DNA from: Candidatus Wildermuthbacteria bacterium RIFCSPHIGHO2_01_FULL_48_25
GTDB lineage: Bacteria > Patescibacteriota > Minisyncoccia > Minisyncoccales > UBA10102
Length of the DNA stretch: 36,400 bases
Reading direction: 5' to 3'
NCBI GenBank assembly: GCA_001823155.1
Contig: MHTR01000014.1
Location: 1 to 36,400, forward strand
A program made the position numbers and the translations under genes. The number at the start of each line of letters is the position of its first letter. Within the stretch, counting starts at the first letter, position 1. Below, piece after piece: positions 22,210 to 28,303 of this stretch. The notes under the pieces were generated by a model. The model saw only the letters and a list, made by a program, of their open reading frames with translations, was not told the DNA's origin and ran no database searches.

Positions 22210-22245
22210 CAAGAAATGATTATGTTATAGCAATAATATTTCTTG
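22210..22245. promoter_or_regulatory. Dyad element, variant operator-like site 3
   Basis: CAAGAAAT-5-TGTTATAGCA-5-ATTTCTTG; outer arms are perfect inverted repeats. Confidence 0.5.
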
Positions 22246-22362
22246 AACATGTGGGAGTACAATAATCTTACAATTATTAGAAAAGTGTACTTGGGAATAG
22301 AGTGGGAATATTCTTGCGATAGCAGTTATTTTACCGCGCTTTAACCGAGTTAAGGCAAGAAA

Positions 22363-22470: not shown

Positions 22471-22659
22471 CTACCTGCAGGCGTTCGGGTCTGTTCTGAT
22501 TACTTCAGCACTCCTGGCAGCGTACACCATTTCCCAAGCTACATTTGCACTTTCGATAGCGCGCTTCGCATCTCCTTCACCAAGACCCACATCTTCGAGG
22601 ACCTGTATGAGTTTTGCTGCTGTCTTGGCAGATAACACAGCCTTCGTCTTGGTCGCCAT
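22471..22659 (-). CDS. Small protein, paralog of 27302-27493
   Basis: MATKTKAVLSAKTAAKLIQVLEDVGLGEGDAKRAIESANVAWEMVYAARSAE; SD aaggaggt before ATG at 22659. Confidence 0.75.
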   Translation of the reverse strand: MATKTKAVLSAKTAAKLIQVLEDVGLGEGDAKRAIESANVAWEMVYAARSAEVIRTDPNACR

Positions 22660-27301: not shown

Positions 27302-27493
27302 CTAGATGCAGAGACTTGAATGGTACTGCCGCTCCGCCGAGGCCGTTCGGGCGGTGTCCACAACCTCTCTTGCTACTCGCCAGTTCTTGATAATCCGGTA
27401 TGCGTCTCCCGAGGTCAACCCGGCGTTTTGGAGTACCCTCACCAATCTTGCCCCTGTCTCGAACGACAGTTTTTGATCTGTCTTCGTTACCAT
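27302..27493 (-). CDS. Small protein, paralog of 22471-22659
   Basis: MVTKTDQKLSFETGARLVRVLQNAGLTSGDAYRIIKNWRVAREVVDTARTA; SD gaggagg. Confidence 0.75.
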   Translation of the reverse strand: MVTKTDQKLSFETGARLVRVLQNAGLTSGDAYRIIKNWRVAREVVDTARTASAERQYHSSLCI

Positions 27494-27542: not shown

Positions 27543-27580
27543 CACTATACTATAACTGCTATAGCACTTTCAGTATAGTG
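27543..27580. promoter_or_regulatory. Nested dyad operator candidate (site 1) over the 27302-27493 promoter
   Basis: CACTATACT-5-TGCTATAGCA-5-AGTATAGTG; core sits in the spacer of TGAAAG-17-TATAGT. Confidence 0.75.
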
Positions 27581-27599
27581 AAAAGCTTTACTATATAAT

Positions 27600-28193
27600 T
27601 CAGGGAAGGTATCTCACAAGTAATTTGGAAAAATGATGCGCAACACTTGAAGGGACTTTTGTGTTCTCGATCGTAAAACAATAGACATATTCTTGAACCT
27701 CAAATAGCGAGGTTAAAACATCTACCTCGTCCTCGCATGGAAAGGGATAAATAAATACGCTGTCCTGCACCCTATAAAAACCAAGGTGCTTGAGAAAATC
27801 CCTCAAAGCTTCGCGAGCACGCTTCTTTTGTTCAGGGATATCAAATACCAAGAGGCGCCATTTACCGTCCCAAGTTTTGGGGATAGAAATTCTTAACTTT
27901 GTAATTGAATCTTGAAGTTGATATTCTTTCTGCCTCATCTTTCCTTCTTCGGTCACTTCTAAGATAATGTTCCCTCTAACTTCTCTAATTCTCACGAATT
28001 TCTTGCGCACAAGAGTTTTATATGTTTTCCAGAGGGATTGCTGGGAAATTTTTTTACCTGAAAGAAAAGGTCTAAACGCAAGCAAAACACCTGGCATAGT
28101 AACCGCAACTCCAAGAATAATTCCTCCGGCACACGCAGCTAAAACCTGTTTCATCAGCTCCCCTTTTTGAAATGCCGTATGCTTTTCTTGCAT
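27600..28193 (-). CDS. PaaX-like transcriptional regulator (Cas2-like ferredoxin-fold C-terminus)
   Basis: WDGKWRLLVFDIPEQKKRAREALRDFLKHLGFYRVQDSVFIYPFPCEDEVDVL; winged-helix-like segment before it. Confidence 0.75.
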   Translation of the reverse strand: MQEKHTAFQKGELMKQVLAACAGGIILGVAVTMPGVLLAFRPFLSGKKISQQSLWKTYKTLVRKKFVRIREVRGNIILEVTEEGKMRQKEYQLQDSITKLRISIPKTWDGKWRLLVFDIPEQKKRAREALRDFLKHLGFYRVQDSVFIYPFPCEDEVDVLTSLFEVQEYVYCFTIENTKVPSSVAHHFSKLLVRYLP

Positions 28194-28199
28194 ACTTTT

Positions 28200-28228
28200 A
28201 TTATACCATAGTTGCTATAGCATTTATA
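28200..28228 (-). promoter_or_regulatory. Promoter of the PaaX-like gene with operator candidate (site 2) in the spacer
   Basis: TATAAA-17-TATAAT-6 nt-ATG; TGCTATAGCA at 28213-28222. Confidence 0.7.
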
Positions 28229-28303
28229 GGAAAGTTACAAAACGTTAAAACACGAAGAAATAAAAAGCGCGATTCTTCCAGAGGAAGAAAAGCGCCGTTT
28301 TGA

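What the first reader, a model, noticed from the sequence alone, without database searches (positions are those of the whole stretch)
27543..28228. PaaX/Cas2-fold regulator with the same palindromic operator in its own promoter and its neighbour's
Seen directly: TGCTATAGCA occurs at 28213-28222 and 27557-27566. In both promoters it begins right after the -35 and fills the first 10 nt of a 17-nt spacer: TATAAA-TGCTATAGCAACTATGG-TATAAT (regulator) and TGAAAG-TGCTATAGCAGTTATAG-TATAGT (small gene). Site 1 is also flanked by perfect 9-bp inverted arms, CACTATACT/AGTATAGTG, each exactly 5 nt from the core. Established knowledge: PaaX-type repressors bind palindromic DNA, and their Cas2-like C-terminal domain often attracts Cas2 annotations. 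Inference: an autoregulated two-gene switch controlling an unknown small protein.
Basis: partly seen in the sequence, partly recalled or inferred. Interest (0 to 1): 0.78.

Follow-up and report, generated by a model that had tools for sequence, protein, structure and literature searches.

The report
Gene bracketed by its own palindromes
In ultra-small bacteria (Patescibacteria), a family of PaaX/Cas2-like DNA-binding genes is bracketed on both sides by two copies of a gene-specific ~38-base palindrome, and the whole unit comes and goes between genomes like a minimal selfish or mobile element, which points to an undescribed kind of self-contained gene unit.

Summary
The sequence observation is right: TGCTATAGCA lies at 28213-28222 and 27557-27566, inside ~38-nt palindromes on either side of a PaaX/Cas2-fold gene (27600-28193, -). 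The 'autoregulated two-gene switch' reading is only partly supported. The downstream small gene is an ORFan found only in this genome.

The real pattern is wider. In two independent sets from Patescibacteria, 53/70 and 39/54 such genes share one gene-specific palindrome between their upstream and downstream flanks, above the 99th percentile of mispaired flanks. In a near-complete genome, the gene ranks first of 247 ORFs for this trait. The upstream copy holds the promoter -10 (33/41); the downstream copy, 8-55 nt after the stop, mostly does not (7/41). It is present whatever the neighbour's orientation.

Units are patchy (28/60 relatives, 0-12 copies). Unrelated units occupy the same gene junctions that are empty in sister species. 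Unit homology often ends at palindrome edges, and some genomes hold dispersed or tandem solo copies (18 in one).

Best explanation: a self-contained unit whose protein binds both palindromes, auto-represses through the first, and probably spreads as a mobile element. Binding is inferred; mobility is unproven: there are no target-site duplications and no HUH/Tyr motif. Main rival: an autoregulator with a packaged auxiliary operator.

The parts
27600..28193 (-). PaaX/Cas2-fold winged-helix protein gene, 197 aa (P0001)
   Evidence: ORF; PaaX_M E 3.9e-24; best fold match E. coli PaaX 8A39; invariant D118, R127 and near-invariant Q143, S145 across 77 homologs
28199..28236 (.). Upstream (U) palindrome, core TGCTATAGCA at 28213-28222, between putative -35 and -10
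   Evidence: sequence; U/D alignment 27/36
28200..28205 (-). -10 box TATAAT (extended -10, TGgTATAAT) of the PaaX-like gene, overlapping the right arm of U
   Evidence: sequence; a -10 is found in 33/41 upstream sites of the family
27543..27580 (.). Downstream (D) palindrome CACTATACT-n5-TGCTATAGCA-n5-AGTATAGTG, 20-57 nt after the stop codon
   Evidence: sequence; family-wide position 8-55 nt after the stop
27544..27549 (-). -10-like TATAGT overlapping the D palindrome (atypical for D sites of the family)
   Evidence: sequence; only 7/41 D sites have a -10 of 5/6 or better
27302..27493 (-). Small ORFan gene, 63 aa (P0002), downstream of D; not a conserved partner
   Evidence: 0 of 60 relatives have a homolog; one paralog in this window

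Best explanation
The feature is a self-contained unit, palindrome - PaaX/Cas2-fold gene - palindrome, about 640 bp between palindrome centres. The gene product, a winged-helix/Cas2-fold (probably dimeric) protein, recognises both copies of its own ~38-bp palindrome. Binding to the upstream copy, which overlaps the -10, represses its own gene. The downstream copy is not an operator of a neighbour but the other end of the unit. The unit probably spreads as a minimal selfish/mobile element using the two palindromes as ends: it is gained, lost and re-inserted at favoured gene junctions, and sometimes leaves solo or tandem palindromes. SHOWN: two-sided palindromes, gene-specific sequence, promoter only in the upstream copy, patchy presence, independent occupation of the same junctions, homology ending at palindrome edges in several pairs, dispersed copies in some genomes. 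INFERRED: protein binding, autorepression, and active movement by this protein.
For: Shared palindrome between both flanks in 53/70 and in an independent 39/54 genes, above the 99th percentile of mispaired flanks; rank 1 of 247 ORFs in near-complete genome G118; same layout in other classes of the phylum. U has a -10 in 33/41, D in 7/41. Patchy: 28/60 relatives, 0-12 copies, some with stops; 90/287 across the phylum, 1-11 copies. Filled versus empty conserved junctions: ArgRS-IleRS, MetAP-next gene and TyrRS-PBP. Units at one junction fall in different clades. G035: two 88% copies in one genome, homology ending at the D edge, and 18 palindrome sites with 0 for the control. Unit 88-96% versus flanking gene 62-78% between two families (L036/L060). 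Homology ends at the D outer edge in L116/L117, L036/L060, L259/L260 and L056/L114. Own-locus extra cognate sites: 15 versus 0.8 expected. Tandem palindromes at 64-66 bp on both sides of L257/L258. Orthologs G083/G118 keep Cas2 domain and flanks but have different winged-helix domain and different U and D together.
Against: No target-site duplication. No HUH/Tyr or other known transposase motif; the fold is a regulator's. Most units have only two cognate sites, e.g. the window's own, and most copies in a genome are old and divergent. Inserts at junctions are larger than the palindrome-bounded unit and can include other ORFan genes. Only one clear recent intragenomic copy was seen.
Confidence: 0.48

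Rival explanations
1. An autoregulated PaaX-type repressor with a main operator in its promoter and an auxiliary operator packaged at its 3' end (lac O2-like). A tetramer or paired dimers bridge the two sites and tighten autorepression. Genes are gained and lost by ordinary transfer and recombination; solo sites are a small regulon.
For: U overlaps the -10 in 33/41; PaaX fold; concerted change of winged helix and both sites in G083/G118; most units have exactly two cognate sites; no target-site duplications.
Against: No helical phasing of U-D distance (R 0.07, p 0.69 at 10.5 bp; a weak test at ~640 bp). Dispersed and tandem palindromes. Homology breakpoints at the palindrome edge. A regulator whose sites are mainly its own two ends has no obvious cellular role.
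Confidence: 0.35
2. One reading: a two-gene switch in which the PaaX-like protein represses itself and the 63-aa gene through operators in both promoters.
For: In this window D carries a -10-like TATAGT ahead of the small gene; the D of ortholog L059 also has TATACT.
Against: Small gene absent from 60 relatives; its one paralog (22474-22659) lacks the W-type palindrome; family D sites mostly lack promoters and occur next to convergent genes.
Confidence: 0.1
3. REP-like dispersed palindromes in which the gene is only a passenger; palindromes serve as nucleoid, termination or mRNA-stability signals.
For: 18 sites in G035, some soon after stop codons; tandem arrays.
Against: In most genomes cognate palindromes are confined to the gene's two flanks; the upstream copy sits in the promoter and is gene-specific.
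Confidence: 0.05

Closest known systems
PaaX family repressors (E. coli PaaX, TIGR02277, PDB 8A39)
   Same: Winged helix followed by a Cas2-like domain; palindromic operator in a promoter; PaaX_M domain 3.9e-24; best fold match
   Different: ~200 aa instead of ~300, no match outside the Cas2-like domain to the PaaX model, far below the equivalog cut-off (28.7 vs 264.55 bits), no phenylacetate genes identified nearby, a second palindrome after the gene, many patchy paralogs
REPtrons (tnpA-REP/RAYT with REP palindromes)
   Same: Gene physically associated with its own palindromes, which can be dispersed and tandem elsewhere in the genome
   Different: No HUH or catalytic tyrosine, no GTAG tag, loopless ~38-bp duplex palindromes, low dispersal (2-18 copies), promoter built into the upstream copy
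Cas2 / VapD-type proteins
   Same: Cas2 fold with the invariant first-strand Asp (FDI, D118)
   Different: Only residues ~112-149 match Cas2 models; an N-terminal winged helix is added; copies are scattered single genes
Insertion sequences with terminal inverted repeats
   Same: Single-gene unit bounded by repeats, patchy, multi-copy, with decayed copies
   Different: No target-site duplication, no known transposase, each copy has its own palindrome, full palindromes rather than inverted half-sites

Membership tests
PaaX family (PaaX_M domain proteins) | PaaX_M central Cas2-like domain above the Pfam cut-off | tested here: met
   85 bits vs cut-off 24; 35/35 homologs
PaaX family (PaaX_M domain proteins) | PaaX equivalog model TIGR02277 over its cut-off | tested here: not met
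   28.7 bits vs 264.55
PaaX family (PaaX_M domain proteins) | Fold: winged helix plus Cas2-like domain | tested here: met
   best PDB match 8A39 PaaX, E 5.7e-5; model pLDDT 74.5, N-terminal part weak
PaaX family (PaaX_M domain proteins) | Represses by binding an operator palindrome; ligand-released | not testable with these tools
   needs EMSA/footprint and ligand screen
Cas2 (CRISPR adaptation) | Cas2 domain match | tested here: inconclusive
   TIGR01573 35.6 bits over cut-off 24.5, but residues 112-148 only
Cas2 (CRISPR adaptation) | Cas1 partner and CRISPR array | not tested
   no genome search for Cas1 or arrays was made; gene found as scattered single copies
REPtron (RAYT/tnpA-REP) | HUH motif and catalytic Tyr | tested here: not met
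   no invariant or near-invariant His or Tyr in homolog alignments
REPtron (RAYT/tnpA-REP) | Conserved GTAG tetranucleotide beside the palindrome (PMC8266576) | tested here: not met
   position profiles show no conserved tetranucleotide outside the palindrome; feature definition
REPtron (RAYT/tnpA-REP) | Gene flanked by, and genome dotted with, cognate palindromes | tested here: inconclusive
   flanking yes; dispersal in some genomes only: 18 in G035, 6 for the C13 type, 2 for the window type
Insertion sequence with TIRs | Target-site duplication | tested here: not met
   outer flanks share no more than shuffled pairs, n=72
Insertion sequence with TIRs | Homology between copies ends at the terminal repeats | tested here: inconclusive
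   ends at the D outer edge in four pairs; left edge less exact

The most novel reading that the evidence does not exclude
A new class of minimal mobile element of Patescibacteria: a winged-helix/Cas2-fold protein mobilises a ~640-bp unit by acting on two loopless ~38-bp palindromes, with no known transposase chemistry, and diversifies its DNA specificity together with both ends, which would make it a Cas2-fold counterpart of REPtrons.
Probability: 0.3. Interest if true: 0.87.

Novelty: new variant of a known kind. Interest (0 to 1): 0.63.

Why it matters
Many Patescibacteria genomes carry several PaaX/Cas2-like genes that automatic annotation may call 'Cas2' or 'transcriptional regulator'. 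The finding gives them a common, testable architecture: two cognate palindromes per gene, with a promoter in one. If the units move, this is a transposition-like system built on a Cas2 fold, which bears on how Cas2-type proteins came to work with repeats and DNA integration. Even if they do not, it is a phylum-wide family of protein/operator pairs with changing specificity, useful for studying how DNA recognition evolves and how paralogs stay insulated.

Tried and rejected
Target-site duplications: none. Helical phasing of U-D distance as a sign of looping: none. Mantel-type test that palindrome similarity follows the winged helix more than the Cas2 domain: weak and not specific (partial r 0.08 vs 0.17); the single-pair comparison G083/G118 is more telling. 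Test that asymmetric positions are shared between U and D (0.56 against a null mean of 0.41, null maximum 0.60): suggestive only. A first alignment was too divergent for the genome scan; a narrower one worked. Viral contigs gave one relative. No solved structure by sequence profile. No paper found on PaaX with Patescibacteria, with Cas2-like, or with palindromes plus Cas2, nor on Patescibacteria with repetitive extragenic palindromes. Empty site for G035's dnaE-rnhB copy in G028 could not be shown (rnhB not found beside dnaE). Treating the small gene as a conserved partner was rejected.

Full report
WHAT IS THERE. Both TGCTATAGCA copies exist as described. They are the cores of two ~38-nt palindromes, U (28199-28236) and D (27543-27580), on either side of a 197-aa gene (27600-28193, minus strand). 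The protein has a PaaX_M domain (3.9e-24) and partial Cas2 matches; its best fold match is E. coli PaaX. In the 514-kb genome the 10-mer occurs at six places, against one for the reversed pattern. Two of the extra places flank a second PaaX-like gene on contig 13. A third gene, on contig 1, is likewise flanked by a different palindrome (TACTTAACTA...TAGTTAAGTA) on each side. That moved the question from one operator pair to a general layout.

THE LAYOUT IS GENERAL. From 60 relatives (28 with hits, 0-12 copies each, some with internal stops) I compared each gene's upstream flank with its own downstream flank. 53 of 70 exceed the 99th percentile of mispaired flanks. An independent set from named genomes (Nealson-, Wildermuth-, Staskawicz-, Moran-, Wolfebacteria and other Patescibacteria) gives 39 of 54, against 17 of 309 other ORFs, about ten of which are PaaX genes already in the first set. 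In near-complete genome G118 the PaaX-like gene ranks first of 247 ORFs. More distant classes of the phylum show the same layout, one with U and D identical over 36 nt. PaaX_M genes occur in 90 of 287 phylum genomes, 1-11 copies.

ANATOMY. In 41 well-resolved units the palindrome has C and G at -3/+3, cores of the type CNRYNG (CTATAG, CGATCG, CCATGG, CAATTG, CGGCCG, CTGCAG, CATATG), a less symmetric spacer and outer arms to about +/-19. U carries a -10 of at least 5/6 in 33 of 41; D in 7 of 41. D lies 8-55 nt after the stop in nearly all. D is present when the downstream neighbour is convergent, so as a rule it is not a neighbour's operator. The window is one of the minority whose D has a -10. 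The U-D distance has a median of 639 bp with no helical phasing.

BEHAVIOUR. Conserved junctions differ by a unit-sized insert. ArgRS-IleRS has ~768 bp with the unit in G023 and from overlapping genes up to ~65 bp in G022, G018, G002, G003, G004, G016 and G006; MetAP-next gene has 765 bp in G023 and 0-15 bp or overlapping genes in most others. G021 and G016 share 89% identical flanks and differ by an insert holding the unit plus another ORFan. Units at the same junction in different genera fall in different clades. The dnaE-rnhB junction, as close as 23-32 bp in some genomes, holds unrelated units in G035 and G056. Between families, L036 and L060 share the unit at 88-96% while the upstream gene is 62-78%. 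Homology stops at the outer edge of D in L036/L060, L116/L117, L259/L260 and L056/L114. G035 holds two copies 88% alike at unrelated loci and 18 dispersed palindrome sites. In the dnaE-rnhB gap, four palindromes separate three genes. In this genome the contig-13 palindrome type has four extra copies, one in the window at 22300-22339, whereas the window's own type has only U and D. Near other units, 15 extra cognate sites were found against 0.8 expected. L257 and L258 have tandem palindromes at 64-66 bp on both sides. There is no target-site duplication.

COEVOLUTION. In G083 and G118 (same genus, same junction) the flanking genes and the Cas2-like half of the protein align well, but the winged-helix half, U and D are all different, and U still matches D in each. 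The natural reading is that the winged helix recognises both palindromes; this is inference. Family-wide correlations are weak.

INTERPRETATION. Shown: a two-ended, gene-specific palindrome unit, patchy and recurrent at junctions. Inferred: the protein binds both ends and represses its own promoter. Most likely, about even odds: the unit is a minimal selfish/mobile element whose ends are the palindromes. The invariant Asp of the Cas2 fold (D118, 77/77) leaves room for nuclease chemistry, but nothing here shows it. The main rival is an autoregulator with an auxiliary operator carried along at its 3' end. It differs from REPtrons in lacking HUH/Tyr and GTAG, and from classical PaaX in length, model score and the second palindrome. 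The two-gene switch is not a conserved system: the small protein is an ORFan with one paralog, also in this window.

LIMITS. Relatives are mostly draft MAGs and the genomes were read in stretches. Palindrome pairs were chosen by best match, so the fine anatomy numbers come from selected sites; the flank-sharing tests do not depend on that choice. The structure model is good for the Cas2 domain and poor for the N-terminus. Literature searching covered only the held open-access library.

Noticed in passing
window 22300-22339 (-): Solo copy of the contig-13-type palindrome (5-7 of 40 differences from contig-22 and contig-13 copies), with no PaaX gene beside it.
   Followed up: partly
window 22210-22245: Another palindrome, CAAGAAATATTATTGCTATAACATAATCATTTCTTG, with different arms and no known cognate gene in the genome.
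   Followed up: no
window 22474-22659 (-) and 27302-27493 (-): Two paralogs (47% identical) of a small ORFan protein found in none of 60 relatives, both near palindromes.
   Followed up: partly
window 22365 and G000 contig 22:3559: The only two copies of TTGTGCTAAACTTAGTTTAGCACAA in the sequence held, each beside a solo palindrome of the same type; may be a small composite repeat.
   Followed up: no
L168 and L184 (G035 C9), L056 (G035 C15): Cognate palindromes alternate with small ORFan genes in cassette-like arrays, two of them 16 nt past a stop codon.
   Followed up: partly
L257:5780-6790, L258:5771-6660: Tandem palindromes at a 64-66 bp period on both sides of the PaaX-like gene.
   Followed up: partly
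L001 near 1505 (G000 C9:8145): Solo contig-13-type palindrome 58 nt upstream of a gene that looks like a RelE/HigB-type toxin (own reading, not searched).
   Followed up: no
L144 (G002, MetAP junction): A junction that holds a PaaX unit in G023 holds two other small ORFans in G002, so these junctions are general hot spots.
   Followed up: no
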